From Henricia sp. BOLD:AAB3569 (taxonomy: Eukaryota; Echinodermata; Asteroidea; Spinulosida; Echinasteridae), in the NCBI GenBank assembly GCA_037783545.1, contig JBBELK010000305.1, forward strand, positions 124,001-188,000: a DNA stretch of 64,000 bases, in the 5' to 3' direction. Both the position numbers and the translations under genes were made by a program. Under the pieces are notes generated by a model. It had not been told where the DNA came from. It was given only the letters and a program-made list of their open reading frames with translations, and did not search any database. This document shows, piece after piece, positions 1-25,929 of the stretch. How positions within the stretch are numbered: the first letter of the stretch is position 1; the number at the start of each line of letters is the position of its first letter.

Positions 1-706
1 GCATTTGGTCACTCGTGCCACTTGAGACAAATATTTTGGCCTCGCGTGGCCAAAATCTCACGTGTGCGGGGGTGATGAGCCAAGTGCTGAGCTAAAATAA
101 ATGTAGCTGGCCAATTAAAAACCATCCCCATATTCACGTGATATGAATACAGTGCGCGCGGGCACCGCTGAGGTCACCAAACTTTTGCTAAAGTGTGGTG
201 ACCTTGGCGGGTTTAACGACAACTTTAACTGTTTGGGTTGGCAACAAATCCACATCGCGTATCAGAATTTACTGAATAATGTTTAATTTATGGTAGCTAA
301 CTCCATATGGTATAGGGGTGGACCACACTAAATAAATTAAAATTAAATAGCTTATTCCAAACTCTCCCGGGACATGGCGCCAGGTAAAAAAATGAATATT
401 TAAGACTCGCACTTTCGTTTTATTGTCAATTTTCACTAAAGTTGATTTTTGTTTATAACAAAAAATGGCTCTAAAGAAGGCTACCCACCCGTGAAATAAG
501 CGTATTCAAAATCAGCCATGCCCGGAAATTATCCTTCCACTACTAACAGGGAAAATTAGAGCACTTTTCAACCTTTATTTTCATCTACATTTATACAATT
601 CTCAGAGTTGCAAAACCTCGAATCAGGCTTAAAACATTACATTTAGGGCCCCACGATGCTTTACGGGGGTGTTCAATTATTACAATGAGCTTGGCACACG
701 GATCTG

Positions 707-1962
707 GGGCCTTATTCACAAAGCCCCCTCAACGATTTGCGGGCACGCAACTACCCCGTAACCCCCACTTAAGCTTTTGCGGGTTATTCACAAAACCGAC
801 TTAAATCTGCGTGCACCCGTAAACTGCCCGTAAATTTGCGGGAACTCCAGACTTCCCGCAACGGGCCCACAACTTGAGTGAGTCGTCTTAAGCGTCAAAA
901 TGGCGGCACTCATGGCAGTATATTCGATTCAAGAAGAACTGAATCGACAGTAAAAAAAAATAAGGTACTGTAAAAATATTTGTACCCTTGTTTGTGATAA
1001 AACATATGTATTGTGTAAAACATATGTATTGTGTAAAACATATGTATTGTGTAAAACATATGTACAGTAAATTACTGTAAGAGATTACAGTTTTAAAGGT
1101 ACTGTAAAACAATTACAGCTATTGTTTACAGTGTAGTATGGACACAGTAATGGCGGATAGCAACCGTTGTCAAGCCAAGTGAAACCCAAGAATACCGTAA
1201 ACCGGGTCACATTACATAGCAACCACATATTTAGTCTGCTCATCTAAGTGTGCAAAGGTTTATTTTATAACGACACCATCCGCTGATGACAGATGTATTT
1301 GTCATTGTGTGATTTTATGAAGCCCCGCATTAGTGTCATAGGCGGGTATTTATTTCACGAAGTTGTGCATGTCTTTTAAATAAGGGTGGGTTTCTTACTA
1401 TAATTTGCGGCCGCACGATAATAAATTGTGGCACTATAAAATGGAGCTTCATAATGATTCGGATTGGCCACAGAGAACATACTTAACTTAAAGGAATCTT
1501 TCTAATAGTTTTTTTTACATGCCGTTTTTTGTTTGTCCTTTTTCTGGTGTTATGTATCCCTTAATCATATTTGTAGAGTGTGACTTGCTCGATAATCAAG
1601 TGTTTAAACGGTGAGTTGATGTGCAAAATTACACTCATTTCGACAATTATGTTTCAAACTGATATTCGAGATATAATTTTTGTTGGCATTAAACTACTGT
1701 ACATTCATAAATTTCCAAGACAGTTTACGCATCCTCATTGGCTGAGTACACATCACGAGGCCGGATTTAAACGAACGATAATAACCAGTGATTAAAACTT
1801 GCTCTTTGCGTTAAGTTGCCGGTGCCCGCAGTTTGCGGGTCTTCAAAGGAAACTCTCAGGGTGCTTCGTGAATAACACTTAACGCAAGTCTTACGTGCCC
1901 TTAACATCCACTTACGGGCCCCGAAAAACGCAAAATTTGCGGGTGCTTTGTGAATAAGGCCC
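707..1962. mobile_element. Non-autonomous element, GGGCCTTATTCAC ends, CTG target duplication
   Basis: The ends are inverted: GGGCCTTATTCACAAAGC at the left and its complement at the right. CTG flanks both sides (704-706 and 1963-1965). The right arm of the large repeat has the empty site with a single CTG, so the boundaries are exact. The motif TTATTCAC(A/G)AAGC recurs inside near both ends (about 784 and 1862). The interior holds an 18-bp tandem repeat and a piece of another dispersed repeat (about 1130-1195). No transposase frame is visible. Confidence 0.88.
999..1063. repeat. 18-bp tandem repeat
   Basis: About 3.6 head-to-tail copies of AAAACATATGTATTGTGT lie inside the 707-1962 element. 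The copies are identical apart from the last partial one, so the expansion is young. Confidence 0.95.
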
Positions 1963-2613
1963 CTGACCCTTATTTTGTGCGGTGAACCCATATATAGCCG
2001 CGTATGCGTACCGGATAGGACGAAGGATATTGCTTTTTTAGAATTTGCGCACGGTTCAAAATTTGCAGCGAACCCACCTTGTGCAGTAGATTGGTTCCCG
2101 ATCCCTATAGATTGGTTCGCTTATTGCGAAAATATAGGGATCGGTAAAGGGCAGCCATGACGGGCAGAATTCTGCCCGTCACGTGGTTATTATTATTTTT
2201 ATATTTTTAGTAAGTGCGCAGATTTTGCATTGACATTTGTAACTTGGCCGTGCGTGTCGAACATATCCAATTATGTAAATAAAGTACATTGCCTAAAGCA
2301 AAGGGCGCACGCGCAAAGACGACCAATTACAGATCAAGATGAAGCGCCCTTTACCTGTCCTTATATTCTCCTGTGTGGAATATGTGGACGGGAACCAGTC
2401 TACCTTGTGCAGATTCTAAAATTGCGCCCGCAATCTAAATTTGCGCTGCGCAATCTTTGAACTCGGGGCATTTTAAAATCTGCGCGCGCAATTTAAAAAA
2501 TTGCGACGAGCATTAATATTGCGCCAGACAGAGCAAAGGAGCCAAAAGGTTCTTTTTGATTGCTTTATTGTGGTCAAAACAGTGACGAAGGCTTATGTGC
2601 GCGAAATGTTATT

Positions 2614-2720
2614 ACTCGAGAATAGTTGAGGTTACCTCGGTCCTAACTTTATCATGTGGTTATTTGCAAATAACCCCATGATAAAGTTAGGGCTGAGGTA
2701 ACCTCAGCTAACTCGAGAAT
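2614..2720. mobile_element. Small palindromic element
   Basis: A near-perfect palindrome centred on TTATTTGCAAATAA, with arms containing CTCGAG, GAGGTTACCTC and CTAACTTTATCAT. The same palindrome is in the right arm at about 17910-18015, so it predates the duplication. It is typical of a miniature hairpin element; no coding capacity is seen. Confidence 0.75.
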
Positions 2721-2853
2721 AAACCTGTCGATCAGAGGTATACGCCTAGTTCTTCTATAAATTTCTAAATCTCTTTTAATGCTTGATTTGTTTTATTACA
2801 GCAGCAAAATACTGATTTTTACATTCCTTTTCGGTTTTGTCTGCTTCATTCAG

Positions 2854-3052
<199 letters not shown>

Positions 3053-3246
3053 TAACACGACTAAGCCGTTCAAAACGGCATGATTTCCACTCTGAAAACA
3101 TAATGTACTTTTCTCGTAGGGCGTCTGTTTTATACTTTTAATTTTTCAAGAGATAACGTTGTTTTAATAAATACGTCCGTTCACAAAGTTCCATTGACAT
3201 TATGCCAGTTATATTTAATACATGTACTACTAAATACAAAAACACA

Positions 3247-3476
3247 TTGGTTGAATTCAACCAATGTGGTTGGTAGATATGTGTCAACCAATCTATTGGT
3301 TAAAATAACTAATCTTACATGTATATGGTGTCCTTTTTTAACCAATCCATATTGGTTAAACCAATATGGATTGGTTGGAAAAAGGGTTCCTAACCAATAT
3401 GGATTGGAAACATTGGTTATTTTAACCAATAGATTGGTTGGACACATACCGACTACATTGGTTAAATTCACCAATC
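3247..3476. mobile_element. Long palindrome rich in ATTGGTT
   Basis: An imperfect palindrome centred near 3362, built from ATTGGTTAAA / TTTAACCAAT units. Both strands translate to almost the same peptide, which is what a palindrome gives and not evidence of a gene. No target duplication is clear. Confidence 0.85.
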
Positions 3477-3503
3477 TGCGTTTAGTGTGTTTCTAAACAT
3501 CTG

Positions 3504-4126
3504 GGACCTTATTCACGAAGCGCTCTTAGGGCTTAAGAGCTCGTAAACCGCTCGCAAGTCCCTCTTAGTAATTTACGTGGTATTCACCATCCCTTCGTAA
3601 ATGTTAAGAGCGTGCGTAGAGTCATCGTAACTTGCGGGAGGTATGAGCTCCCTTAACGTCCACTTTCGTCTAAGAGATTGTTCATCGCGTTTATTTTTAT
3701 GCACTTCAAAGTTGCTGTGTCGCAGAATTTACTGACAAGTGTTTTGTAGTTAACCTCAACGAGGCCAACCAGCTTGTCCACTTCATCTCCGCTAAAGTTT
3801 GCTTTGCGTGCATGTTTCTGCTTTTTCTTGGACTCTGCCATCCTTTCAGTGCTCACGTCCCTTGATCTGTGGAGAATGTGTCCGTGCACGGCAGTCGGGC
3901 GCCGCCCTAAATAACTTTACATTGCGTAACACCGTCAGCGTAAATAATGCCCCGGACCATCAGATCTTATTTAACGACCACGCAAGTTAATATCCCGGTA
4001 AGTGCATGTTATGAAGGCTTCATGAATACCACTTAGTACGCTCTCAAAGCCCTCGCAAAGTCCTCGTAACTTCTTCGTAAGTCACTCTTAGTGAGCAAAT
4101 TTAAGAGCGCTTCGTGGATAAGGCCC
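3504..4126. mobile_element. Non-autonomous element related to 707-1962
   Basis: The left end reads GGACCTTATTCACGAAGCGC and the right end is the complement of GGGCCTTATCCACGAAGCGC. The flanks are CTG at 3501-3503 and CAG at 4127-4129. GTATTCA motifs recur inside near the ends. No transposase frame is seen. Confidence 0.8.
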
Positions 4127-4420
4127 CAGTAGGCTACCTTTACCATCTTGATAACAAGTAAGCTTAGTGATAATTTAGAGGTAGTAATTACCAAACAGGT
4201 AGACTACCTTTAAACACGACTGTATGAATGTCGCACAATCTTTTTGTAAGAAACTTGAAACCAGTATGAAAGAATAATATTATAATAATGTGCTATAATA
4301 ATAAATATATAATATAATATAAATATACTTATAACTAATCATTCTACCAACTCGTTCATCTGCAATGACCCAACATTTTAAACACAACATCTGGTACCGG
4401 TATGGTGCCTGATCACTATT

Positions 4421-4762
4421 GAAATGGAACAACCAAACTTGGAATAAGAGAAAAATGGTCTTATCGGGATTCGAACCCGATACCTCTCACTCACTAGGCA
4501 GATGCTCTATACCAGCTGAGCTATAAGGCACAGTTGGTACATTCTCTCAGGTTTTCCCCCTATGTACCCAATTCGGTGTTGCATGGTGGCGCAACTGGGC
4601 AAAGTAACGAACAAAGTAACGAATAGGGGAGACCTGAGGGAGTATACCAACTGTGCCTTATAGCTCGGCCGCTAGAGCATCTGCTTAGTGAGTCAGGGTT
4701 CGAATCCCGATAAGGCCCTTACGATATTTCTCCCATCTCAAGTTTGGTTGTTCCAAAATTTC
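4421..4762. mobile_element. Inverted-repeat element carrying two tRNA-derived arms
   Basis: The outer ends are inverted (GAAATGGAACAACCAAAC and its complement). Inside each end is a tRNA-like sequence, 4457-4530 on minus and 4654-4717 on plus, facing each other. Each has a recognisable A box (TAGCTCAGCTGGT in the first) and B box (GGTTCGAATCC). The would-be anticodon is AGT, but the anticodon stem does not pair well and the second copy lacks the variable loop, so these are tRNA-derived rather than working tRNA genes. Confidence 0.8.
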
Positions 4763-4837
4763 AAATTAGGAGTTGACGAGAGAAGAAAATTCACTGAAAT
4801 GTTGATAGGAAAAACAAACACCACATGAAGTTATTCT

Positions 4838-5050
4838 TGGGTTTCACTTGGCTTGACAACCGGTTGCTATCCGCCATTACTGTGTCCATGCTATGGCACG
4901 ACAAAGCGAACAATAATTCAAGCCAGATAATTTAATGTTAACCCATATTTTCGCAAATGTTGCGCAAGAAAAAAAGTTAGCATGACTTTTAAATGTTGAT
5001 AGACTGTTTGAAACTGGCATACCGTACTTTTGTTGGCAAGTTTTTAAAAC
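4838..5050. repeat. Dispersed repeat, copy 1 (inverted copy at 13125-13325)
   Basis: It contains the block TATCCGCCATTACTGTGTCC and downstream AAATGTTGATAGACTGTTTG. The same block sequence occurs inverted at 13125-13325 and in part at 1130-1195. It abuts a related element at 5124. Confidence 0.7.
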
Positions 5051-5123
5051 TGTTGAGACTTGTTTTTTCAGGGTTGATGGCAAAATTATCAGTGTTGAAT
5101 TATTTCCGCTTTGGCGTGCCATA

Positions 5124-6151
5124 CGCGTGACGTCAACAACTATCATATCCGCCATTACTGTGTCAATACTATGCTGTACCAGAATTCCTGTCTATGATCA
5201 TGGTACTTCCTGTAAGAAATTTTAAACCATTCGCCTAACGCAAGAAGCTGGGGATTTTCTGCAGCATTCCTGCATCTGTGTAGCTGAAATTTCTGTATAT
5301 AGGTTAGTTTAACTAACATTTTCTTTAGATATTTTATGCCCTGCAGTCTGTCCAAACTCTCAAAGCCCCGGTTTTTTTTAATAGAACTACCGGTGGTCAG
5401 ATTAGCAAAATACCGAATCTGAAAGTAAAATGCATGCTGATTGTGACCTCGAAATAGTAATTAATATGCGGTTGGAATAGTAATATACGACTATACAATT
5501 TTTAAATGCCTCTCAGTAGGGTACTTATTTTACATATTGTAACGTGCAAGGGCGCCCAGTAGAATAGTGCCACCAGGCGAGAGGAGTACCGGAGGATCTG
5601 TGCATAATTACGCATGCGCGTAGGGGACGTACAAAGTCCTGTTTCTACGGCGTTCTGTGCTAACCATGGCTGTTTGTTACGTTGCTTAGGTTTGAACACC
5701 TCGGCTGCAAGCACTTTTTGGGCAAACTCACTTAGGCTCTCTTGTGGTAAGTTCTGATTCTCTAGATTGGGGCGACCCTTGGGTTCTAGGTTGAATCTTG
5801 AGACATATGCTGGGGGCGAAGACCGTTAGGTTCACGCAATTGGCGTCTCTGTTTGCGGAACGGATGAAGAGATAGTAGCCTTTGGTGAATTCGCAAGTAG
5901 TCTAACCGCGAGAGATAAGCCACGAGGTTTATCTGTCTTGGGTGCGCGGCTCATTACGGAGAACCGTGATTTCATCACAGTAAGGTATCTGGTGCCATGA
6001 TCGTGAGAGGGCCTCAACATACATCGTGTGAAAGGAAGCTGTTGTCCACGCACTACCAAGCAGCACACTAGCATCGTCACGTGGGGGCGGCTTTGACGTG
6101 CCATTGTATCGACACAGTAATGACGGATATGATAGTTGTTGACGTCACGCG
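5124..6151. mobile_element. 1-kb terminal-inverted-repeat element
   Basis: The ends are 41-base inverted repeats beginning CGCGTGACGTCAACAACT, with one mismatch between them, and share the CCGYCATTACTGTGTC block with the neighbouring dispersed repeat. The interior shows no transposase; the long minus-strand frame at 5832-6314 has no recognisable domain and runs through the terminal repeat. Confidence 0.82.
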
Positions 6152-6452
6152 AAATCCATTTTCTGGAAAAATCTGAACACGCTCCTTTAATGGGTATTTT
6201 GTATGCAAACAAGTAACAAACATTTAACAAAGCAGAAACCATGCATAAAATAATTGAATTTAGAAGAAAAAAATATTTGGACACAACACACGCGTAGTTC
6301 TCACAAAATATCAATTTATTACACTACAGCTGCGCTTCATTCTGGTATAGCTTCAATTTAACTAAATTTAACATTATTTTTACGAAGTGAAATTTGAACA
6401 AAAATGTGACCTAGACATAAATTAGTCTCATGAGACGAATTTATCATACTCT

Positions 6453-6600
6453 TTATAGCTCAATAATTGGTAGGGCGTCTGCACGTTAAGCAGAAGGTCC
6501 GCGGTTCAAATCTCGGTGTAGCCAAGTTGCTTTTCACTGCATCCAGATTTCCAAAACTCCAGGACATTTGTCCATATTTGTAAAGTCGAAATTATTTACC
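6453..6600 (+). mobile_element. tRNA-derived SINE, Asn(GTT)-like head
   Basis: The head (6453-6523) has a TAGCTCAATAATTGG A box, a five-pair anticodon stem TCTGC/GCAGA round the loop ACGTTAA (anticodon GTT, but C instead of U at position 33) and a GGTTCAAATC B box. The tail TTTTCACTGCATCCAGATTT recurs after the second copy at 7085. Probably a SINE. Confidence 0.65.
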
Positions 6601-6822
6601 CCGGCGGTCCCTGGGTCATAATCCCTAAAAATAATAACTTATCCATATACTTAATAATTGGGGTAAGCCGGGCAGGAGTTTTGGGGCGTATCTTATTAGT
6701 GAGCTCTGGGAGGGGTGGTTATCTCATTGAAGGGTTTATCCCTCTGTAGGGCTTGTTAAGCTCACGTGATAGCCAATCCTAAGAGGAACAACTGCACTAC
6801 CGTGATTCGAGACCACCATTGG

Positions 6823-7150
6823 CTTCATAGCTCAATAGACCAGTTGCGTGATAGATTTGCATAAATCCTAGAGTCCCGCCTTCATGCTATGGCGCTCGCA
6901 TGCGAGTGAGTCAAGCACCAGACTACCTGGCAAATCAGGCCGTTTCCAGTGGGTGCAAGCTGGTCCATAGTAACCGGCGCGAAAGTCTCCAGGACTTATG
7001 CAAATCTATCACGCAACTGCTCTATTGTTATGGGGTCTGCACGTTGAGAAGAAGGTCCGCGGTTCGATTCCCGGTGGAGCCAAGCTTTTCACTGCATCCA
7101 GATTTCCCAAACTCATATGGACATTTGTCCACATTTGTATCGAATATTAT
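6823..7150 (+). mobile_element. Second SINE copy, split by a hairpin
   Basis: The same tRNA-like head and tail as at 6453, but the head is interrupted after TAGCTCAATA by a 186-base hairpin (6838-7023) and resumes with TGGGGTCTGCACGTTGAG. The shared tail ends near 7150. Confidence 0.62.
6838..7023. mobile_element. Hairpin element nested in the SINE head
   Basis: The arms CAGTTGCGTGATAGATTTGC and the complement at 7000-7020 pair, followed by CTAGAG / CTCCAG. It lies exactly where the intact SINE at 6453 is continuous, so it is an insertion. Confidence 0.68.
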
Positions 7151-7448
7151 TACATGCGAAGAGTGTCTAAACCGAACAAAAATTAAATCTAAAAATTATT
7201 TACGTCAAACCTTGTTGATTTTTACTAATGAAATATTAATTTAATGTCCTTGGGAATTTCCTAAATAAAGTTTTCACTTTCTCCCACGGGAAAATAGAAC
7301 CGAAATGAATTTTCAGGTTTTAAAATTTTGTTTTAAAATTGTGGCATTAATTCCATTGTTTTTATCAAACGTTTAAAATCACTCAATATTTCTATAAGGC
7401 AAGGAAGGCAGCAGACGTGATTATTCGGCATCATATTTTCTTGCAGGG

Positions 7449-10400
7449 CTAGGGACGGGGGCGACGGATGCGACCTGCAAAGAAGGTAACAAATTAGAGT
7501 TATAGGCTTAGTCACAAAAAAGACTTGAAGGGCCCATGACATGCTAAACAACTTTATGTCTAGTCTTTGCTGCATATGATGGATTACTTGTTTAGCAAGA
7601 CATTACTATTGTTCGTTTTAATGTAAAATCAATAAAAGTAGGGGTTTTTTTAACTTTGGAAATTTCATTGCAGTAAATCACAGAAAGAGGGCGCTGTTTG
7701 GAGTGCATCACTTCAGGAAGACACGAGGAAAAGTTAAAAAAAACACAGACTTCTAGTTTTAGCAAGTTTGAGAAACAAAAAGTGGAATCTTGTGTGCATA
7801 GTTGAATGTGATTTTCCTGCGTTTGGCTCTTGTGACATCACAACCTTGCTCGTGAATATGCATATTACATTTGCATAAAAGCTAAAAACCTTTCTTTTAA
7901 CGCCCAAAACAAGCTCCAAATAGGATTTTTATGACTCTAAACTGATGAGTAGAATAGTTTCATATCATAGATTTCATTGATAAAAATCCCTAATCATCGG
8001 CCCTTTAAGGTATAATGACGTCATCCTTTCGTTTACATGTGTGACATCACTCTTTGTTGTTAATGCAATGCGAACAGTATTTTGGGTTCTTGGAGAAATA
8101 ACGCACATGTAAAGAAAGAGTGGCGCCATTTTGTCTTGTGTCTAATTATTGAGTCTCGCAGTTTCAACTTTGTAAAGAGCATGATCTTGCAAGCATTGTA
8201 AACGGACGTCATTTGCCATGTTCTGTAAATACTGAGCATGCTTAACGATAACGTTTAATACCGTTGTAATTTTCCCACAACGCCAAGCGAAACTCCGCGT
8301 TACACACGGGTCATTCTAGAATACATGACCCGTGGAGTCGAGTCTCCAATAGGGTATACCCATCGATATATATACACTGGATGAAGTATACAATAGACTG
8401 CCGAAGTGAATACGTCAGCTTTTGTTGGTTGCCTAGGCAATTGGATCTAAACTAAAAATCACTCAACCGCGTCCCAGTGCTTTTCCAATGGTACTTTTCC
8501 CGACGGCCATGATAGTTTGGATCCAATTGCCATGGCAACGCACGTCACACTTCGGCTGTCTATAGACTATGTAAGTCTCGCGGCAAAGGTCAAATCTGAG
8601 CTTCCGGGCACAACACGACTAAAACGTAAGTATACAACCGAGCCGAAAGTGATTCGGGTAACAAAAATGTTTTTTTACAATATATAATACATGCATAATT
8701 ATCTCTAAAAACGATAAAAATTTATTAAAATTTCGTGACCTGAATACATTTCTCTGCTAGCATATTCTTCATCCAATTTGGAATGGATGACCCAAGTGTG
8801 GATTCATGTGAAAATGAATGCTTCGAACTTGGGCACTCTAAAAAAAAGTCTGCAAGCTCTACTTTTGGTATATGGCATTTCGCCTATCGCTAGCGAGGTC
8901 TGTATGTACACTGTAGGCCTACGTACGTCGGCTGCTGTGCGTGTTGCATATCTTTTGCTGCATGTAGTTTACGATCTTCAAATATTGACTTGTCGGCTCA
9001 GAAAAGATCGTTAATTTTTACATTTCGATTGCTTATTTTTGATTATATACCCCACTTCATCAATTGGAATGCAAGATTTTATTTAGAGATACGCGTTTTG
9101 GGCTGTCTGAGTTTACAAAAACCTGCGTAAACAAAATAATCCAAGAATTTCGCTCGCGACGTGCGTTGAAGAGATAGGGTCTTGTGCCCGGAAATAACAG
9201 TGGTCTCGCGCGGTCTCGTACGTTCGCGAGGTCAAGTTACAGGCTGCGTTCGGGCGTGCAGTTCTCGCTACTCCGGAGTATCTAGTAATGCGTGCGCATT
9301 GCACTCGGGTCACATTACGCGAACGGCAAATTCACAGTCCGCCTGCGCGAATGGCCATCAGTCAAGATGGCCGTCTCTTGCCATGACTACACAAAAACGC
9401 CGTTCCACTGCTCACAAGAAATTGAAGAAAATACAGGCCGTAAGTCGTGAGAACCTTTGATGCCGTGTAAAACAAACCTTAGTGAGTTGTTGTTTCAGTT
9501 ATCCAGTGGACACGTTTAGCAAATTCACCAAAAATCCAACCTATATCCCGCCATCTTCGTACTAATCACATGGCATTCGTCGGGAGTAAGAGCACACTCC
9601 CCATTTGTTGGGGAGTACTGAGAGCATACTCTCACTGACCCGAGTGTCGTTAATCTTGCCGTTCGCGCGCGCAGGAGTATGCTCGTGTTAACACGAGTAC
9701 ACGCCCGAACGCAGCCACATAGTCTATAGCAGTTGCATGGCTATACGAGAATTGAAGCCATGCGCCGGCCGCCATTGTACCCCACGAACGATGCTTGGCC
9801 TAGACTGCTCCCCTGTCCATGCGATCGCTTGCATTCCACTTAACACGTGTAGACCATGATGTAGACTAGTGAAGACAGCATGACCAGTCTAGGCAAGGCA
9901 TTGGCGCTTTTCCAAATCTCGACTTCGTCTCTAACTTAGACCTTTCGCAGATACTGCTTGAGTGAACTTAATTGGACAAAAGACAGAGCTGCAATGTGGG
10001 AAGGTTGTTGAATCGCTATACTTTCCACATTGCAGTTCTGTCTTTTGTGCAGGAGTATTTGCAAAAAGGTGTATGGCCACATGGAGCCGGAGACGGAGAC
10101 GGAGACGAAGCCGAGATTTGGAAAAGGCCTATTGTATTAGGTAGGGTACAATGGCGGACGGTGGCTTCAATTTTAGACGTCGTTGCTTCATCCAGTGTCT
10201 AATATCGATGGGTATACCACACAGTGGTATACCAGAAAACTCGACCGGGAAAGCACACCCATAATGGACATAACGCGCCCTCAACAAAATATTCCTTCTA
10301 AAAACAAAAACTAAAACAGTCAAGTGACATAAAACAGTCGATTTCTTTACATGCAAAGAACAAGAAGTTGTAAGAACGGATAATTAAAATGGGCAGATAT

Positions 10401-13400
10401 AAATAACAGTTTAAAAGAAGGATTACTTACTGGTCTCACACTGTTCTCCGTGGGTGCCCGGTAGGCAGTTGCACCGAAAAGAACCGAACCGCGTATAGCA
10501 CGTGCCGCCATTGTAACACAGTGCCCATTCTTCCAGGCAGGCGTCATCTGAAATGATGTAAGACAATTCTATCATTATAGAAAACGTTAACTTATATGGC
10601 CTTAAAGATAGTATACATGATTGGTAAACTGTTACAAATAGTTTTATCCCCCTGTGTGATTGAAGATAGTATACATGATTGGTAAACTGTTACAAATAGT
10701 TTTATCCCCCTGTGTGATTGAAGATATGCATGATTAAAACCAACCTGAGCAAAAACCAGCTCCGTACTTCGTCTAACTTTTGAGAAAATAGTCCAAAAAG
10801 GGTTTGCAGTCATTTTGCCCCAAAACCACTTCGCCCTGAACCACGGCCTGTGCACGAAGTGGTTTTGGGGCGAAGTGGCATTTGGGCGATGTAGTGTTTG
10901 GATGAAGTAATTTGGGGCGAAATGGCACTCGGGCGAAGTGGTTTGGGGTGAAATAGCACTTGGGTGAAATGGTTTTGGGGCGAAATGAATTTTCGTCTCA
11001 TGAGACGAAAACTAATTGTTTCACTCATTTCTCAAAGACTATAGCACTTCAGACAAAATCATTTCAGGAAAGTTTTCTACGGTCATCATGTTTATATTGT
11101 GTAAGTTAGGCGTAAATCTGTGAACATTTCTGATTTTCGAGATTACCAACGATGTATAGGCCTACTGCCTTTAAAACCCAGCGAGATTTTGTGGAAAATG
11201 TTAACAGACGACAATCACACGAAATAGCTGTGCTCCGTTTTCGCCATCATGACCAGATGAATGTTTGTATGGCACTGAAATGCATTCAACCAATGATCAC
11301 AGTTGCAACTTAACTGAAACCAATAATATTGTTTTGGTCGAAGCCGTCAGAAACATATTTCTGATTATGGTCGCGAAAACAGGGCTGCGTGAACATTGAA
11401 AACGTTTGCATCGTTCGCCAACAACTGGTACCCGGCTTTCCATAGACGAGTGCACAAAAGCACTGTAACCAGTGGCGAACGTTAATTGGCAACGTTTGCG
11501 TATGTGGAACGCACCCCAGGCCCCTGTGCTTACACAAGCTGAAATGGTAGATGACATCCTGTGACTTATCCGGGTTCAGCTGTCCTGAAAACGAAAACAG
11601 AATCAAAATAATTAAATTGATAATTTCGTTTTATGCACGGGAACCAGCAAAGCGTGACGTCACTGTGCTTTGGCAATATGGGCGCCGCCATTTTGAATTG
11701 AACGTTATGGTGCAAAATGGGCAAAAGTGCCCGTTGTTGGTTTTCTTTCTTTTTAAATTTCTTACAAACCATCGTTGACTAGATTGCGTTCGAGTCAGAA
11801 ATGGTCGAACTATACATATTAAACAGTATTTGAATTGCTTTAAGAGAAGCTCAGTGATTTTAACAACTTGGCCACGGAGGCATACACAACAAACGTTGTA
11901 GCTGTGTGTATATTGCGATGTATGTGTAAAGTGCGTGTTGTAGTCGAGTCCTCCTTACGTGTCCATAAGTACAGGTCCTAATCAATTGAAAGTACAACAG
12001 TCCGCAACAATGACGTCATTATGTGCATTTTGTTGGGGTACCGTGGCCGAGTGGTTTAGATCATTGACTCGCAATACTCGCTTGGAAACTTAAAAGATCC
12101 AATAACTCTCTTTCGTGAGGAGTAAAGAGCATGATCCAAAACTGGTAAACACTGGATGAAGATTTCAAAATCTCTTAAATTAATTAAAATAAAACTTCGA
12201 TCTGTAAAGAAATGTCCATAATATTTTACAATCATATTACAAAAATTAACAGAATAAATTTGACTGGACACACTGTGCCATCACATTTTCAAGAAATAGT
12301 TGAAAATGCATGTACAAAATTTCCCTTTTTGTAAATGTTATTGATTATCTGTCCCTCACGCATAAAAACAACCTCCGCATAAAACTGTAAAGTCAATTTT
12401 AACATGTGATAAACTGGGTGTGTGTATTAACATTAGTAGCAGGTAAACAAACAGGTTCACTGTAGTTTGCATTTGTTGTTGACTTAGGAAAGGCATTTTT
12501 CTCCTGATTGGATCACGCTCTAAAAGGGATTCCCTGCGGCCTCTGGCCGTCGGCTGCCAATGGCGCCACCCACATATGTATCTCGATGTTTAGGTGGAAC
12601 ATACTCGTAAATTTCTTGCAATTAATCCTACGAGCTATTGATTGAAGTCCATTAAACCCATTAAATAAAAAATGTCCAGCATTTGCCTCCAGAATAAAAT
12701 GAGAATATAATAAAATATTTGCCAGCGGTGCTCACCGGTGAACGAGTTGACACACAACAGTCCGCACCCGCTGTAGCAGCATATTTCGTCTGCTGCACAG
12801 TCGTTGTTGGTGTCACATTGGTGGTAACACAGTTCGTAATTCTCTTCCTCAAAAACGGGGCACCAGTTTGCATCTCTGGTCAATGTTTCTGGAATTGATG
12901 TGCAATGATATATTTAGAATTGAAAAACGCTATATTTTATTCATTGTACATCAAAATAAACAGGATCTTGCTAAACGAATGGGTAATTCCCAAAATTAGG
13001 TGTCCAAAATGTTTGGTGTCCCAGTTACGTACGACACTCTCTGCTTCAAAAATCACCACTCGTGACCACAAATTATAATGGACTGTGGCCTGTGATTATA
13101 GGGGGCAGCATCATTTTCTTCAATATTTTGTTTACTGATTTTCAAACAGTCTATCAACATTTAAAAGTCACGCCAACCTTCTTTTTTTTGCGCAACATTT
13201 GCAAAAATATGCGTCAACATTAAATTATCAGTGTTTAATTATTTTCGCTTTGGCGTGCCATAGTATGGACACAGTAATGGCGGATAGCAACCGGTTGTCA
13301 AGAAAGTGAAACCCAAGAATAAGAACGTACTCGTCTCACAATGTCGTCCGGTGTAATTTTTTGGGCAGATACACATGAAGTCATCTTCACCGATTTTTCG

Positions 13401-16400
13401 GCAAGTCCCGCCATTTTGACACTCGACATCAGGGTCGCAAAATGCTTAGAAAAGAAAACGTGCCATGGTTAGTTTGCGCATAAATTAAAGTAGAACACAT
13501 GATTGGTATCTCGAAAATCAGAAATGTTCACAGATTTACACATAACTTACACAATATAAACATGATGACGGTAGGAAACGTTTGTCTGAAGTGCTAAAGT
13601 CTTTGAGAAATAAGTAAAACAAAAATTTTCGTCTCATGAGACGAAAATTCATTTCGTCCCAAAACCACTTCGCCCTGGACAACTTCGCCCTGAACCACTT
13701 CGCCCAAAAGCCACTTCGCCCAAACATCACTTCGCCCAAACATCACTTCGCCCAAATGCCACTTTGCCCAAATGCCACTTCGCCCCAAATGCCACTTTGC
13801 CCACAGGCCGTGGTTCAGGGCGAAGTGGTTTTTGGGCGAATCGCGAAGTGACTGTAAAGCTTTTATTTTTGGTACTGTTTCCTCAAAAGTTCGACGAAGT
13901 ACGGAGCTGACTTTTACTCAGGTTGGATAATCATGCATATCTCAATCACACGAGATGAAACTTTTTGTAACGGTTTACCAATCATGTAGACTACCTTTAA
14001 AGGACAAGGTATAGGCTCGTCAATGCGCGCGTGAGGCCAAATTCGTGCCACGAAATACGCAGCTTCATGCCTTTGCTGTGGAGCTGCGTATTTCGTGGCA
14101 CGAATTTGGCCTCACGCGCGCATTGACGAGCCTCTAAAAACAACAAAAACATATGGAAAAACAAAACCCCGCTAGAAAAAAATATATAATTGAAACGCAT
14201 GACCCTTTTAAATTGAAGCGAATAAACTGGAAACAAGATCAAGAAATTGTAGGAGTTCCCGGATGTTTGTGTCAATTTTGCTGCAAATGTAACAAAATAC
14301 AGCTGAACCGCTGTTCAAAATACAAGATTTTTCGACAAAAAAGGAAATCCATGAACCAAACAAAACCCAGGGTTGGACATCATAAAAACTTAAATTTTGC
14401 AACGGGGATCGCAATTAATCAGTAATTGATTTGGCTTGCGTCGGGGAGAATGTATGTTAATTGGGGTTTGTTTTTGCCCTTACCCGACGTCTGCCTTGTT
14501 TGCAAGGTCGTGGGTTCGAATCCCGCCCGAGCACGCCTAAAGTTGTTCATAGTGTCTCGGGAAAGCACTGAGTATACAGCGCTAATATACGTTGGGTAAG
14601 GGCAAAACAAACCCCATGCAATTAACTTAATGTTGCTGTTTTATGATACTTACATTTTTTCGCTGTACAAATCAATCCACCTGAGAACAAAGTAAAAAGA
14701 CATGAGAATGTCACAACAAGTTAGGGATATTGTAGAGTGTACGCATGCAGATATTTTGACGGTATGCATTGCGCTTGAGTGATTGTGTATATGATTATAT
14801 CTGCAGGACAGATACATCTTGTTTTGTCATGTCTGAATTCTGGAAAATGTGCTCAATTCCAAAATAGAACTACACCCACATATATGTAAATATAGTGTAT
14901 TTATATAAATTTATATAAAAGTAACGAAACAAAGTGCCCTATACACATCGTTTAAAGAGGAAGAATCCCCCTTGACGAAAATCCAGCATTGAGGCTTTTT
15001 TCGATAGTCCAAACATCCCTCTTGCCGACGTGGATTTTTATTATTTTTTATTTGTCGGTTTTAAGTGGATAAATTGCAAGCAAAAGTGCGCTTTTCGAAA
15101 ATGAGATTTTCGCGATTTCTGAAACGCTCATTAGGTATTCATGATATGCGCATGACACCGTGACGCAATCCTGAGAAAGAAAAGTCAACACGATTGTTAG
15201 CTCCATACGTTTACACGCAAAAAACTTGGAAAACCTTCTCTGTAATACCCCAGTCACAATTAGCTTGCGGTGGGTTTGCGAGTAGTTTGCGACGGATTTT
15301 TAGGCATTTTCGGCCGGCGCCCCACGGGACTCCTTGCGGCTGCCGGGTCATTTTTTGGCATCGGGCGGGCATCGAGTTACTTTTAAATCGGATTGTAAAC
15401 CTGGTGCGGCGTTTCGCATCGCAAACTGATCGCCACTAAATCGGTCGATGCCTGACCGATGTCCGGCAGGGCATCGCACACATCGGGCGGGCTCCGGGCC
15501 AAATTTTTGACAACCCAGACAATCCATATATCGGCCAGGCGCCGCCCAGGCGCCGCCCAGACGCCGGCCGGGCCCCGCCCGGCGTCCGGCCGACTTGGCG
15601 GTGCCCGGCCGGAAATCGGCCAGACATCGGCCGGGGTATCACAGTGAAATAGGCAGGACATCGGCAGGACATCGGACGAGTGCCTGCCGGACATCGGACG
15701 AGTGCCTGCCGGACACCGGCCGATAAACGGGCCAAGAAATCGACCCCATTCCGTCATGGCAGCGTGCGGGGCACTTTTAATTGTGACTGTGACCGCCCAA
15801 TCGCGCGATCTTTTGCCGACCTCTACACGCCGGCCGATGCCTATAAATCGCACACGCCGCCCGGCCTCCGCTTTAAATGTGACTTAGGTATTAGATGGTG
15901 TTTTTTGAAGAATTGTTTTGGTCCAAAAAGCCAGAGATATGCCCAGTTGCGTGGTTGTATGTTTTACCAGACATCATGAAAAAAAAAGAGCAGAAGCTAA
16001 GATCCTTTTTTATTACGAAGAGAGAGAGAAAAATGAGTCGCTCATTCTAACTTGTACCGGCCGATGTGCATATACCGTGTGCCAATTTCAAACACGTGGG
16101 AACTACGGCGCGGCCCGCAGGCACCATTCCCACTGCTGTACACGGACCGCTGTTCGTTCCGTGACAAACACCGGTCGCAATGCACCAGTGTTTCCTTCAA
16201 AAGACTCGACTTCATTGTGAGCCACAATTTTACGGGTTTTTTTCACAAAAAAGGTAACAGTAGATTTTGTCGTTTTACATCAGGTGTTTTCACGTTTGTA
16301 TTTTGAATTACAAGGACAAAACAGGCATGATGAACATACACTTCGTATATTTTCCATTCAATACTGCACAGGCCGTTTTGTGTGTTTCTCAGGATGACGT

Positions 16401-16723
16401 ATCGCCCCTGTTTGTAAACAAACCAAGTGACCTCGAGCGTTTCAGAATTTCGGGTGAAGAGGGTCGGAACTGAATTGCGTTTTAAACAAATACTGTCGGT
16501 TTTTGGCGGAAAACACGTTGTAATCGCGTTGTAGAAACATAAACCTCCATGATAAACAGGAAAACTAAAAAAATGTGGATGGGTGGATTCTAGCTGTTTA
16601 ATATAAAGCAATGAGACTATTGAAGAGGGAGCAAATTACCCCCTCGCATTCTCATCCCCCGAAGTACTTACCGAAGAGAGCTATCCCATGCAGGTAAAGA
16701 AGAACGACGTGAATGTTCGCCAT
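7449..16723 (-). CDS. Secreted EGF-WAP-EGF protein, six exons
   Basis: Assembled by eye from GT/AG sites, all introns in phase 1: 16723-16672, 14680-14654, 13444-13331, 12888-12736, 10547-10431, 7474-7449; 489 bases, 162 residues. Residues 1-17 ([17 protein letters not shown]) look like a signal peptide. Residues 29-63 are an EGF-like domain with six cysteines and the CQNGGTC motif. Residues 74-110 are a WAP four-disulfide core with all eight cysteines (CP...CYHQC...C...CC...C...C). Residues 119-153 are a second EGF-like domain (CYNGGTC...[12 protein letters not shown]). The tail SRIRRPRP is basic. WAP domains often inhibit serine proteases or act on microbes; EGF modules mediate contacts. 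Function here is inferred only as extracellular. The last exon is the weakest call: if the intron after 10431 is retained, translation stops after four codons. No named family member with this order is recognised. Confidence 0.78.
7475..8390. other. Intronic DNA without recognised features
   Basis: This is the 3' side of the last intron of the EGF-WAP-EGF gene. I see no domain, no clear repeat and only short chance reading frames. Confidence 0.4.
8391..8566. mobile_element. MITE, CTATAGACAGCCGAAGTG ends, copy 1
   Basis: Inverted ends, (CAATAGACTGCCGAAGTG at the left, complement of CTATAGACAGCCGAAGTG at the right) enclose GGTTGCC and CCATGGCAAC motifs. A second copy lies inverted at 37949-38125, with matching internal segments, so this is a family of about 176 bases. 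Confidence 0.85.
8567..9241. other. Intronic DNA without recognised features
   Basis: A+T-rich sequence inside the last intron of the EGF-WAP-EGF gene. Only short open frames, none with a recognisable domain. Confidence 0.35.
9242..9716. mobile_element. TIR element, GGCTGCGTTCGGGCGTG ends
   Basis: The ends are 17-base inverted repeats. The flanks share ACA (TTACA before, ACATA after), a possible 3-base target duplication. The interior has GAGTATGCTC and GCGCGCGC stretches and no transposase. Confidence 0.8.
9750..10172. mobile_element. Long hairpin with nested inner hairpin
   Basis: The outer arms (AATTGAAGCCATGCGCCG... at 9750-9780 and its complement at 10146-10172) and an inner pair (ACAAAAGACAGAGCTGCAAT at 9975 and its complement ending 10047) make one palindrome of about 420 bases. 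It also includes GACGAAG and CTTCGTC blocks pairing around CCAAATCTCG. Confidence 0.75.
10604..11175. mobile_element. Element with CTTCGCCC minisatellite core, copy a
   Basis: The left end carries a tandem duplication of an about 58-base unit (GTATACATGATTGGTAAACT...). The middle (10806-10990) is a degenerate minisatellite of GGGCGAAGTGG / CCACTTCGCCC. The right part has TTTCGTCTCATGAGACGAAA and ends near CTTTAAA. Copies b (13487-14003, inverted) and c (29020-29398) share the order of parts. Confidence 0.85.
11401..11496. mobile_element. Hairpin with ACTGGTACCCGGCTTTCC core
   Basis: The ends pair (AACGTTTGCATCGTTCGCCA and complement GCGAACGTTAATTGGCAACG). The core GGTACCCGGCTTTCCATAGA is found twice more at 42155-42245, inside a different element. 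Confidence 0.65.
12035..12090 (+). repeat. Truncated tRNA-like sequence (Ser/Leu type)
   Basis: GGTACCGTGGCCGAGTGGTT resembles the 5' half of a class II tRNA with its A box. No B box follows within the expected distance, so it is a fragment. Confidence 0.45.
12126..12521. mobile_element. AGAGCGTGATCC family element, copy 1
   Basis: Starts AGAGCATGATCCAAAA and ends GGATCACGCTCT, an inverted pair. A direct-orientation copy at 47582-47938 matches across most of the interior, including GAATAAATTTGACTGG and GATTATCTGTCCCTC. Confidence 0.85.
13125..13325. repeat. Dispersed repeat, copy 2 (inverted to 4838-5050)
   Basis: Contains CAAACAGTCTATCAACATTT followed by GCGCAACATTTGCAAAAATA and ends in ATGGACACAGTAATGGCGGA. 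It directly abuts the exon at 13331-13444, leaving the splice donor only a few bases outside the repeat. Confidence 0.7.
13487..14003. mobile_element. Element with CTTCGCCC minisatellite core, copy b
   Basis: Inverted relative to copy a. The core (13649-13850) is a minisatellite of CACTTCGCCCAAACAT-like units. The outer ends read TTAAAGTAGAACACATGATT and the complement of CCTTTAAAGGTAGTCTACAT. It lies in the intron before the first EGF exon. Confidence 0.83.
14013..14133. repeat. Perfect 52-bp-arm hairpin in an intron
   Basis: Arms 14013-14064 and 14082-14133 are exact reverse complements, with a 17-base loop; the stem begins AGGCTCGTCAATGCGCGCGT. No mismatch is seen. It sits in the intron between the 27-base exon and the first EGF exon and would be transcribed with that gene. 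Confidence 0.92.
14456..14626. mobile_element. TIR element with a tRNA-derived core
   Basis: Inverted ends (GTTAATTGGGGTTTGTTTTT and its near-complement) flank a core with the 3' half of a tRNA (B box GGGTTCGAATCCCGCC at about 14511). This is the second element here in which inverted ends enclose tRNA-like sequence (compare 4421-4762). Confidence 0.78.
14951..16600. mobile_element. Composite element A filling intron 1
   Basis: The ends are inverted: TTTAAAGAGGAAGAATCCCC at the left and the complement of TAAACAGCTAGAATCCACCC at the right. It occupies nearly all of intron 1 of the EGF-WAP-EGF gene. Parts recur elsewhere: 14951-16250 inverted at 36490-37103 (without the nested insert) and 16265-16600 direct at 37490-37830. 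Confidence 0.8.
15244..15893. mobile_element. GC-rich element nested in composite A
   Basis: The ends are TAATACCCCAGTCACAAT and the complement of TAATACCTAAGTCACATT. The interior is a GC-rich degenerate repeat of CGGCCGACATCGG-like words. The copy at 36490-37103 is continuous across this point, giving an empty site. Long reading frames on both strands come from GC content and repetition and are not genes. Confidence 0.8.
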
Positions 16724-16792
16724 TTTTACTGTCAGTGCCACTCGCAACGTATAGGCCTAAATGTATATGATCCGAGAATATGATCGTTCTGC

Positions 16793-16799
16793 TTTTATA
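16793..16799 (-). promoter_or_regulatory. TATA box of the EGF-WAP-EGF gene
   Basis: TATAAAA on the minus strand, 70 bases upstream of the ATG at 16723. A start of transcription about 30 bases downstream, near 16765, would leave a 5' leader of about 40 bases. Confidence 0.55.
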
Positions 16800-16839
16800 G
16801 GGTTTAGTTGTTTGACAAACAGCTTGTGAGTTTAACATG

Positions 16840-17310
16840 TTTGAATAAATTAAGAAATTTGGAAATGACGCATGATATTGTTAACGACTAAGTAGAATTT
16901 TGTCCACTAAAAACCAATATACCCACTCCTTTTAAAGGTATATACTTGTTTGGCAAAGTGTTAAAAACGACATGATTTGCACTGGTATCTGAAAACATAG
17001 GTCGAGAAAACTACCTTGTAGAAATTTCAGCCACATGAATATTTCGATGTCAACTCATAACATTCGTTTGTGAAGAAAATTTTCGTTTCCTCTGATGCTC
17101 GGTATAATCATACTGACGTTGAGACGATATAGAACATCACTGCATAAATGGTTTGCATAATTAGACGTTTTCCCTTTGAACTGAAGTTTCATAAAATTGT
17201 ATGGAAACGCCACGGAGCTCATGTAGTTGAATAAAAAGGCACAAATGGCGAGGTTCGCTATAACTCACTTCATGTCTGTCACTGTGTTTTATTACACGTC
17301 TTAATTTCTA
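16840..17310. other. Upstream region of the EGF-WAP-EGF gene
   Basis: A+T-rich DNA between the TATA box and the AP-1 cluster. I see no repeat and no reading frame of note. Confidence 0.35.
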
Positions 17311-17321
17311 TCTGAGTAATG

Positions 17322-17489
17322 TGACTCATTTATGATGACTCAGTTAGAAAGTAAAATTGAGTCAATAGACCCACATATAATTCCGAGTCATTTGACTCTT
17401 TTTAAGTGAGTAAAGTGACTCACTTGAGTCCAACAGTGTGTCACTACACGGACAAACTGATGACTCACCCAAATGAGTCAGTTGACTCA
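17322..17489. promoter_or_regulatory. Cluster of six TGASTCA (AP-1) sites
   Basis: Perfect sites start at 17322, 17336, 17416, 17461, 17474 (TGAGTCA) and 17483, with more one-off variants between them. The cluster lies about 550-725 bases upstream of the predicted start of the EGF-WAP-EGF gene and just inside the right arm. TGASTCA is the AP-1 consensus; whether it acts as an enhancer or is only part of a repeat is not known. Confidence 0.5.
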
Positions 17490-17568
17490 GTATTTATTTT
17501 CTGTGTACCGAAGGTCGCGGTAACTTCCCGCGAGGCAGCGGAAAAGAAAGTCCAATGGGAACATGCCT

Positions 17569-19412
<1,844 letters not shown>

Positions 19413-23707: not shown

Positions 23708-24055
23708 CTGGTGGCAGCGGCGGCACGATACGAGCGGAAAAGAGGGAGAAACTCCGAGCTTTTTGCGGACAGAAATGACTACACGAGGTCAAAGAAGCAT
23801 GCAACTCGTTTCGCCATGCGGAGGGGGCGTGGCCGGGGACGGTGAGTCCCCCAATGGTCAACCTAGCCATTCCAACTGTAGTCTTTTTGTTACAGTTGAT
23901 GATTTACTGTCCCCTTTTGGTGAAAGCCCAGGAGAAATTACCGAAGGACAGAGATATTTTGGCAGGATGCTTGAACCAGAAATTGTGGAGCAGCCCGGAG
24001 GTGCTCGTGTTCACGTGGCTGACGCGTGGTACCAGTCGGAACCGCCGGAGCAACC

Positions 24056-24830
24056 AACACGCCGCGGATGTACATTACCAGACGGAACCGCCCCGAGGCG
24101 TTCATGAAGCGCACGCTGCGGAAATAAAGTACCGACCGGAATACCGTGACATCACGGAACATTCCCGCGAGGCAGGCGCTCGTGACTTGGGCGCAGGTCC
24201 CTATCCGGAACCGCCCCAAGCCACTCACGCCCGCGCCGCGGAGATACAGTACCGACCGGAATCCCGCGACATCATGGAACATTCCCGCGAGGCAGGCGCT
24301 TGTGACTTGGGTGCAGGTCCCTATCCGGAACCACCCCGAGCCACTCACGCGCACGCCGCGGAGATACAGTACCGACCAGAACATCGCGATCGCTCGGAAT
24401 ATTCACGCGAGGCAGGCGCTCGTAACTTAGGCGCAAGTTCCTATCTGGAACCGCCCCGAGTTCACCAGCACACCACGGATGTACATTACCGGACGGAACT
24501 GCCGGAACGGTCGGAGCATCCCCGAGCCACTCGCGCGCGCGCCGCGGAGATACAGTACCGACCGGAATACCGCGACATCTCGGAACTTTCCCGCGAGGCA
24601 GGCGCTCGTGGCTTGGGCGCAGGTCCCTATCCGGAAACGCCCCGAGCCACTCACGCGCACGCCGCAGAGATACAGTCCCGACCAGAACACCGCGATCACT
24701 TGGAACATTTACGCGAAGCTGGTGCTCGTGACTTGGGCGCAGGTTCCTTCCCGGAACCGCCCCGAGTTCACCAGCACACCGCGGATGTACATACCGGACG
24801 GAACCGCCGGAACGGTCGGAGCAGCCCCGG
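24056..24830 (+). repeat. 120-bp coding minisatellite in gag
   Basis: Five 120-base units start near 24111, 24231, 24351, 24541 and 24661; three shorter related units of 60-72 bases lie near 24056, 24471 and 24776. Each long unit encodes 40 residues with the signature AAEIQYRPE...SREAGARDLGAGPYPEPP. As 120 is a multiple of 3, every frame stays open on both strands, which explains the many overlapping reading frames. Confidence 0.9.
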
Positions 24831-24986
24831 ACCACGTATCCAAAACAGGATTCTAAGCCAGACAACGGGAAGGTACATTTTGCACATGCAAATAATGTGG
24901 GACCGCATCTTGTCGGAAGTTTCCACCCATCACCGAAAATTCAAACTGGCGAACCTGGGGCTCCATGGGGCAGTCGGAGACGGGTG

Positions 24987-25929
24987 ATGCTCCCGGACAG
25001 GTTTGACGGAGTTTCTTCATGGGACGATTACTTAGTCCACTTCGAGAGTGTTGCCATAGTCAACCAGTGGGGCGAGGCCGAGAAAGCAATTAATATTCCT
25101 TGCTTCACGTCTGAAGGGCTCAGCGCTAGAGGCCCTGGCTGACATGGAACCAGAAGCGCGGAAGGAGTATTCCACCGTCCTGCAGCCGATTTCACGAAAC
25201 TTTACGCAATTGCGCAAGTCCACTTACGCCATTACTTGCGCAATAACTTATGGCGTAAGTGGACTTGCGCAATTGCGTAAAGTTTCGTGAAATCGGCTGC
25301 TGGAGTATTTCGAACAACGATTTGGGGTCTCTGCCCAAATTCTGTTGCACCGGGTTCAACTGTCAACGCGCACTAGAGGTCGCGACGAGTCAATCAGTGC
25401 CCTTGGACATTCTATCCGACGATTGGTAACCAAGTGTTACCCGACATTGCCCACGCGGGCTCAGGAAGACTTGGCATTGGAGGCTTTCCGCAGTGCACTT
25501 GGCAATGAGCGATTGCAATACCATGTGTTTTCAAGGAAGGTAACAACCTTGACTGAGGCAGTTACCCTAGCGACCGACATGGAGGCGTTTCTGGAGTGTC
25601 AGATACACAAGGAGAAACAAAGGGGTAGAGACGCTAGGTCGAGCAGCGAGAGTGTCGGTTGTGTGCTTGGGTCATCTGACCGATCGAAAGAGTGTTTTTG
25701 TTGCCACGAGCTTGGTCATTTTTGGCGGGATTGTCCACATAGGAGGCGCAAAAAGGACCAGCGTTCAAAAGCCGCACAAGGAACACAACAGAAGACGCCT
25801 CTAGTTGGAGCTGTGACGGGGCAAATGGGACTTAAGCGGGGCAGGAAAAGGAAGAGACATATGTCACCTGCATGCATTGTGGGAGGGAATTCTCCAGATC
25901 CGGCAACTTGGGCGACACTATATAGGTAA
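24987..25929 (+). pseudogene. gag core and zinc knuckle, broken
   Basis: A capsid-like core begins LPDRFDGVSSWDDYLVHFES and continues past a frameshift near 25110. It is interrupted by a 116-base MITE (25184-25299) and resumes in frame with the reading interrupted there (LEYFEQRFG). The C-terminal CX2CX4HX4C knuckle CFCCHELGHFWRDC is at about 25695. This is the nucleic-acid-binding structural polyprotein of a Ty3-type element, inactive here. Confidence 0.8.
25184..25299. mobile_element. CAGCCGATTTCACGAA MITE inserted in gag
   Basis: A near-perfect palindrome with ends CAGCCGATTTCACGAAAC. It is flanked by CTG on both sides (25181-25183, 25300-25302); removing it restores one continuous gag frame across the site. 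A longer relative is at 46673-46836. Confidence 0.92.

What the first reader, a model, noticed from the sequence alone, without database searches (positions are those of the whole stretch)
7449..16723. A small secreted protein with EGF-WAP-EGF order, enclosed by near-identical inverted repeats
Six exons with all-phase-1 splice junctions join into 162 residues with all 6+8+6 domain cysteines in place. I do not know a named protein with exactly this order. It is the only intact gene inside the 14.5 kb flanked by the inverted arms. Short cysteine-rich secreted proteins with WAP domains are often protease inhibitors or immune effectors; that role is inference.
Basis: partly seen in the sequence, partly recalled or inferred. 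Interest (0 to 1): 0.75.

Follow-up and report, generated by a model that had tools for sequence, protein, structure and literature searches.

The report
Small secreted EGF-WAP-EGF protein gene
The window carries what looks like an ordinary but intact animal gene for a small secreted protein built from three common disulfide-rich modules (EGF, WAP, EGF); the order may be unusual, and nothing here shows what it does.

Summary
Six minus-strand exons with GT-AG introns, all phase 1, join to 489 nt and 162 residues. Pfam finds EGF, WAP and EGF on exons 3, 4 and 5 taken singly. They are the only EGF/WAP cysteine patterns in 64 kb; 100 shuffles gave no WAP and 0.04 EGF on average. A TATA box 76 nt before the ATG and a signal-like first exon support the start. 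The arms are real: left arm from the window edge to 3064, right arm 17569-19412, 14 substitutions in 1782 aligned bases. Both carry half an SRCR domain and differ by indels there.

The protease-inhibitor/immune idea is weakened by the WAP module itself: C2-x3-C3 spacing as in anosmin-1 and nawaprin, SLPI and elafin matching only downstream of C2, acidic with no Lys or Arg. A matrix, mucus or adhesion role seems likelier, but is inferred. Whether the domain order is new is untested: no animal proteome was available, the genome search did not complete, and three phrase searches of open papers found no such protein named. A sound, modest find.

The parts
16794..16799 (-). TATA box (TATAAA), first base 76 nt upstream of the ATG
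   Evidence: joint rarity with a signal-like first exon
16672..16723 (-). exon 1: start codon and most of the signal peptide ([17 protein letters not shown]), donor GTAAGT
14654..14680 (-). exon 2 (27 nt): end of the signal region, strong acceptor and donor
13331..13444 (-). exon 3: EGF-like domain 1; O-fucose consensus CQNGGTC; N-glycosylation sequon NYT
   Evidence: Pfam EGF 1.3e-9; motifs
12736..12888 (-). exon 4: WAP four-disulfide core, cysteine spacing 10-3-5-5-0-3-3, acidic
   Evidence: Pfam WAP 1.1e-7
10431..10547 (-). exon 5: EGF-like domain 2; O-fucose consensus CYNGGTC
   Evidence: Pfam EGF 1.2e-4, just above its cut-off
7449..7474 (-). exon 6 (26 nt): basic tail SRIRRPRP and stop codon TAG
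   Evidence: acceptor in the top 0.13% of AG sites
7240..7245 (-). possible polyadenylation signal ATTAAA about 200 nt after the stop
   Evidence: hexamer match only
1..3064 (+). left inverted arm (reaches the window edge), with a 1.26 kb insert
17569..19412 (-). right inverted arm
17576..17800 (-). open stretch with a truncated SRCR half-domain (profile 2-47 of 100) in the right arm
   Evidence: Pfam SRCR 3.3e-15
2850..3064 (+). the same SRCR piece in the left arm, frame broken; borders approximate
   Evidence: translations and arm alignment; not sent to Pfam
704..1962 (.). insert with inverted ends (GGGGCCTTATTCACAAAGC), a DNA-transposon-like element in the left arm; empty site in the right arm

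Best explanation
An animal gene assembled from class 1-1 modules encodes a small protein that is probably secreted: after removal of a signal of about 24 residues (site inferred), 138 residues (15.7 kDa) with EGF, acidic WAP, EGF and a short basic tail, and 20 cysteines that can all pair. Shown here: exon structure, domains, cysteine patterns, promoter-like and signal-like start. Inferred: expression, secretion and role. The likeliest role is a small matrix, mucus or adhesion protein whose WAP acts as a rigid acidic docking module, as has been modelled for anosmin-1, rather than as a canonical protease inhibitor, with two possibly O-fucosylated EGF modules as stable spacers or ligands. The inverted arms are a separate event: a duplicated piece carrying a broken SRCR half-domain, perhaps partly homogenised by gene conversion, which could let the interval flip by recombination (inference). 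About 0.9 for the gene model, about 0.4 for the role.
For: Exons, phases, open frame. Domains. Chance control. The 12 candidate cysteine-rich 1-1 exons on the minus strand 3000-17600 are all versions of exons 3, 4 and 5. TATA and signal-like exon. Joined exon GC 0.507 (single exons 0.333-0.731) against intron GC 0.36-0.465; GC3 0.558, close to 0.543 of the trypsin-like ORF in this window. Each of 6 exons matches only itself in the window at E up to 0.01. WAP spacing as in anosmin-1 and nawaprin, SLPI and elafin matching only from two residues before C3. WAP residues 73-113: pI 4.05, Lys+Arg 0, Asp+Glu 8 (Arg69 lies just outside); two O-fucose consensus sites; no calcium-binding EGF consensus. 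Arms: 2 substitutions in 1436 outer bases, 12 in 346 inner bases, Fisher p 1.5e-7 with the split chosen after seeing the bins. WAP or EGF proteins in adhesive mucus, footprints and shell matrix: PMC7333891, PMC9382459, PMC3374290 (passages). Docking model of the anosmin-1 WAP with FGFR1-FGF2: PMC8874799 (passages).
Against: No transcript, protein or relative was seen. One donor and three acceptors are middling. An alternative signal-like first exon at 14200-14116, without TATA box, exists. The PDB matches of the WAP are all weak (best WAP row E 0.19). Authors of the mucus and footprint papers themselves mention defensive, inhibitory or antibacterial roles for WAP proteins. Patchy arm divergence could come from two duplication steps instead of conversion.
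Confidence: 0.55

Rival explanations
1. A secreted WAP protease inhibitor or antimicrobial effector: the residue after the second WAP cysteine (Tyr86) would be P1 and the EGF modules would position the inhibitor.
For: The WAP of elafin does this; its inhibitory region runs from Leu20 (P5) to Leu26 (P2') with Ala24 as P1 (PMC10098471, passages). Authors of adhesive-mucus papers suggest defence for WAP proteins. A Tyr at P1 could suit a chymotrypsin-like protease (inference).
Against: C2 and C3 are 3 residues apart, so on elafin's scheme P3' would itself be a cysteine; SLPI and elafin match only from two residues before C3. The module has no Lys or Arg and pI 4.05, unlike cationic antimicrobial WAPs (recalled).
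Confidence: 0.25
2. The exons are part of a larger modular protein whose other exons lie outside the window or were missed, so EGF-WAP-EGF is a fragment.
For: EGF and WAP modules occur together in larger proteins such as UMODL1/olfactorin (PMC8874799, passages). Exon 6 is short and weakly constrained. Exons with few cysteines or unusual donors would escape the scan.
Against: A signal-like ATG exon with TATA box on one side, a stop-bearing exon with a strong acceptor on the other, no further cysteine-rich 1-1 exon found between 3000 and 17600, no other Pfam match above cut-off in the ORFs sent.
Confidence: 0.12
3. A recently decaying or unexpressed gene copy in a rearranged interval.
For: It sits beside duplicated, broken SRCR pieces, and its introns hold several repeats.
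Against: No stop or frameshift in 489 coding bases, 5 of 5 introns with GT-AG and 20 of 20 domain cysteines kept.
Confidence: 0.08

Closest known systems
Anosmin-1 (KAL1), WAP module
   Same: Gap-free alignment from C2 to C8 with C2-x3-C3 spacing (1zlg); extracellular.
   Different: Anosmin-1 continues into four FNIII domains (PMC8874799); the match is weak (E 0.24).
UMODL1/olfactorin
   Same: An extracellular protein with WAP and EGF modules, an EGF-like domain lying in the linker after the WAP (PMC8874799, passages).
   Different: Large, with EMI, FNIII, SEA, ZP and a transmembrane part; no EGF-WAP-EGF unit described in the passages seen.
Nawaprin
   Same: Same C2-x3-C3 spacing, gap-free from C2 to C7 (1udk).
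   Different: A 51-residue chain without EGF; match weak (E 0.19).
Elafin / SLPI
   Same: WAP four-disulfide core.
   Different: Match only from two residues before C3 (E 1.9, 2.6 and 9.3); here the inhibitory segment is shortened and the module acidic.
WAP proteins of adhesive mucus, footprints and shell matrix (Patella P-vulgata_12, sea star Sfp8, Lottia WAP proteins)
   Same: Cysteine-rich proteins of secretions or matrix with WAP modules (PMC7333891, PMC9382459, PMC3374290; passages).
   Different: Their WAPs are combined with antistasin, FAMeT or further WAP domains, not with two EGFs, in the passages seen.

Membership tests
EGF-like domain proteins | six cysteines in the EGF pattern and a Pfam EGF match above cut-off | tested here: met
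   exons 3 and 5: 38.6 and 22.7 bits against a cut-off of 21.5; pattern scan
WAP four-disulfide core proteins | eight cysteines with C5C6 adjacent and a Pfam WAP match above cut-off | tested here: met
   32.4 bits against 20.8; spacing 10-3-5-5-0-3-3
canonical WAP protease inhibitors (elafin/SLPI) | extended inhibitory loop around C2 with a long C2-C3 segment (segment length recalled) | tested here: not met
   C2-x3-C3; SLPI and elafin match only from two residues before C3 (ranges only, alignments not shown)
canonical WAP protease inhibitors (elafin/SLPI) | inhibition of a serine protease | not testable with these tools
   needs purified protein
class 1-1 shuffled modular proteins | each module on its own exon with phase 1 introns on both sides | tested here: met
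   5 of 5 introns phase 1, one module per exon for exons 3, 4, 5
anosmin-1 family | WAP followed by FNIII domains | tested here: not met
   no FNIII match in the joined protein; only the WAP spacing is shared
UMODL1/olfactorin | WAP and EGF with FNIII, SEA and ZP domains | tested here: not met
   only EGF-type and WAP families found by Pfam in the joined protein
secreted proteins | N-terminal signal peptide and no membrane anchor | tested here: inconclusive
   one hydrophobic stretch, residues 1-24, none later; no signal-peptide program was run

The most novel reading that the evidence does not exclude
A lineage-specific extracellular regulator with a previously undescribed EGF-WAP-EGF order, in which an acidic anosmin-type WAP held between two O-fucosylated EGF modules binds a growth-factor receptor or matrix partner, sitting in an interval that can flip by recombination between near-identical inverted arms.
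Probability: 0.08. Interest if true: 0.55.

Novelty: new member of a known kind. Interest (0 to 1): 0.3.

Why it matters
If the order is truly undescribed, it adds a compact natural example of module shuffling and a small test case for what a WAP without a full inhibitory loop does. The flanking arms offer a testable case of gene conversion or inversion between inverted copies around a single gene. Neither would change how the field thinks.

Tried and rejected
Chance alignment of exons: rejected. Additional domain exons between the arms: none with five or more cysteines and 1-1 phases on the minus strand, within the donor patterns and exon lengths (60-390 nt) scanned. Other genes between the arms: 29 of the 31 ORFs of at least 70 aa that overlap 3065-17568 were sent to Pfam (27); none reached a curated cut-off (best: Myb/SANT-like 0.0027, Leptin 0.015, zinc finger 0.028, all below cut-off). 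Elafin/SLPI-like inhibitor: disfavoured. Arms as a simple sequencing fold-back: disfavoured, since they differ by a 1.26 kb insert, eight smaller gaps and 14 substitutions. Arms as a coding transposon: one arm stretch was sent to Pfam and gave SRCR only; not tested further. A relative in viral contigs: 2 stretches matched a pattern, none confirmed. In the PDB search of the joined protein the 51 rows are EGF-type matches as far as the aligned ranges show; none spans the WAP as best stretch. Naming the species: not possible; TAGGCCTA occurs 9 times against 0.87 expected, which I recall as common in some marine deuterostomes, but no call supports that.

Papers: 11 were opened, all only as passages found by term: PMC9382459, PMC5460417, PMC8874799, PMC7333891, PMC3374290, PMC8902148, PMC3927609, PMC8626000, PMC10098471, PMC5094078, PMC12549020. 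None of the passages shown names an EGF-WAP-EGF protein; PMC5094078 and PMC12549020 show WAP in other architectures of sea anemones. The rest of the listed papers (for example 3 of the 9, 10 of the 12, 13 of the 15, 4 of the 5) were seen as listings only.
Full report
Observation. All five introns are GT-AG and phase 1; the joined 489 bases read as 162 residues to a TAG. Pfam finds EGF-type and WAP families in the joined protein, though PF00008 itself reports one stretch only and the second EGF shows through hEGF and EGF_2. Exon by exon it gives EGF (exon 3, E 1.3e-9), WAP (exon 4, 1.1e-7) and EGF (exon 5, 1.2e-4, 22.7 bits against 21.5), all above the curated cut-offs. A six-frame scan of the 64 kb for loose EGF and WAP cysteine patterns gave 2 EGF and 1 WAP hit, precisely these three; 100 first-order Markov shuffles gave a mean of 0.04 EGF (maximum 1) and no WAP.

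Is the gene complete? The first exon has an ATG with A at -3 and G at +4, a hydrophobic stretch and a GTAAGT donor, with TATAAA 76 nt upstream. In the 4.1 kb upstream of exon 3 there are two signal-like first exons against 0.077 expected; one with a TATA box 40-140 nt upstream arises in 1 of 300 shuffles. I set those criteria after seeing the exon. The other candidate, at 14200-14116, has no TATA box and remains a possible alternative start. At the other end exon 6 adds eight residues and a stop after a strong acceptor; if intron 5 is read through instead, the frame stops after CETSK, so the domain content is the same. ATTAAA lies about 200 nt after the stop. Between 3000 and 17600 on the minus strand the scan for phase 1-1 exons with at least five cysteines listed 12 candidates, all versions of exons 3, 4 and 5; exons poor in cysteine or with unusual donors would be missed. 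Splice-site strength is uneven: donors rank in the top 0.25 to 6.7% of GT sites, acceptors in the top 0.02 to 10.3% of AG sites, with frequencies recalled rather than fetched. Each of the 6 exons matches only itself in the window, while the introns carry several repeats.

Is it alone between the arms? Of 31 ORFs of at least 70 aa that overlap 3065-17568, 29 were sent to Pfam as such; none reached a curated cut-off. Of the other two, one is the WAP exon read on into its intron and one crosses the arm border. A weak tRNA-Thr-like match lies at 4457-4529. Spliced genes of short exons without many cysteines are not excluded.

What the protein looks like. After a signal region of about 24 residues (cleavage site inferred) the mature protein would have 138 residues, 15.7 kDa, pI 4.8 and 20 cysteines: 6, 8 and 6. 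Both EGF modules carry the O-fucose consensus C-x4-[ST]-C; there is one N-glycosylation sequon; calcium-binding, O-glucose and beta-hydroxylation patterns are absent, and a loose O-GlcNAc-like pattern occurs in the second EGF (the patterns are recalled).

The WAP module. Its cysteine spacing is 10-3-5-5-0-3-3. Against solved structures 8 rows came back at E up to 10. Nawaprin (E 0.19) aligns without gaps from C2 to C7 and anosmin-1 (E 0.24) from C2 to C8, whereas SLPI (E 1.9, 2.6) and elafin (E 9.3) match only from two residues before C3 (for these three only the ranges were shown). All these E-values are weak. The two best rows are conotoxin structures (E 0.11, 0.15) and one more is a DNA glycosylase (E 0.91), which I take as chance. 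In elafin the inhibitory region runs from P5 to P2' with the scissile bond after Ala24 (PMC10098471, passages). Placed on that scheme, with the residue after C2 as P1 (recalled position), the present module would have Tyr86 as P1 and a cysteine already at P3'. Residues 73-113 have no lysine or arginine and a pI of 4.05.

Role. WAP- or EGF-bearing proteins occur in adhesive mucus, footprints and shell matrix (PMC7333891, PMC9382459, PMC3374290; passages), although the authors of the first two also mention defensive or antibacterial roles for WAP proteins. WAP modules in anosmin-1 and olfactorin are proposed, by docking, to contact FGFR1 and FGF2 through acidic residues (PMC8874799, passages). 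On this basis I put a matrix, mucus or adhesion role first, at about 0.4, inhibitor or antimicrobial at about 0.25, and leave the rest open. None of this was tested.

The inverted arms. The left arm runs from the window edge to 3064 and the right from 17569 to 19412, with 14,504 nt between them. They align over 1782 bases with 14 substitutions; 2 lie in the outer 1436 bases and 12 in the inner 346, Fisher p 1.5e-7 (the split was chosen after seeing the bins). This fits partial gene conversion or a two-step history. The left arm holds a 1.26 kb insert with matching inverted ends, and the right arm has the empty site. At the inner end of the right arm lies the first half of an SRCR domain (E 3.3e-15, profile 2-47 of 100); the left arm has the same piece with its frame broken, and the two copies differ there by indels, so neither is an intact SRCR domain. 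The arms therefore look like a duplicated stretch that carries part of a decayed SRCR gene and need have no functional tie to the EGF-WAP-EGF gene. Whether they are multi-copy in the genome could not be asked: the genome search was busy on all eight tries.

Novelty. Phrase searches for 'EGF-WAP', 'EGF and WAP' and 'WAP and EGF' in 5.39 million open papers gave 0, 1 and 0 papers; in the passages shown, the one paper lists EGF-bearing and WAP-bearing genes separately (PMC8902148). Proteome databases were not available, and many modular proteins are never named in papers, so this says little. Modules, phases and size are typical of shuffled extracellular proteins (established knowledge, not tested here).

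Verdict. Real, well read and probably a working gene; the order may be uncommon; the function is open. Interest 0.3.

Noticed in passing
33566-35233 (+): A long open frame of 555 residues with a trypsin-like match (Trypsin 2.4e-4, just above cut-off; Trypsin_2 1.1e-5, just below), in one reading frame without interruption; from memory it resembles PRSS23/35-type proteases.
   Followed up: partly
23842-24987 (+): An open frame of 381 residues with 40-residue repeats (120-base unit nested in a 306-base unit) and an open antisense frame of 197 residues; no Pfam match for the sense frame.
   Followed up: partly
25345-25929 (+): A frame with weak SCAN and zinc-knuckle matches, both below cut-off, perhaps a retroelement gag piece.
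   Followed up: partly
10663-11155, 13497-13997, 29019-29301: A repeat family with a 15-16 base minisatellite (TTCGCCCAAAAGCCAC and similar) in introns of the gene and elsewhere.
   Followed up: no
14009-14130: A near-perfect hairpin with arms of about 50 bases in intron 2, perhaps a miniature inverted-repeat element (seen by eye).
   Followed up: no
4457-4529 (-): A tRNA-Thr(AGT)-like match, 37.4 bits in Rfam, possibly a weak gene or a tRNA-derived repeat.
   Followed up: no
3653-3889 (-): A 78-residue frame with a sub-threshold Myb/SANT-like match (E 0.0027), perhaps a transposon relic.
   Followed up: no
whole window: TAGGCCTA occurs 9 times against 0.87 expected from base composition.
   Followed up: no
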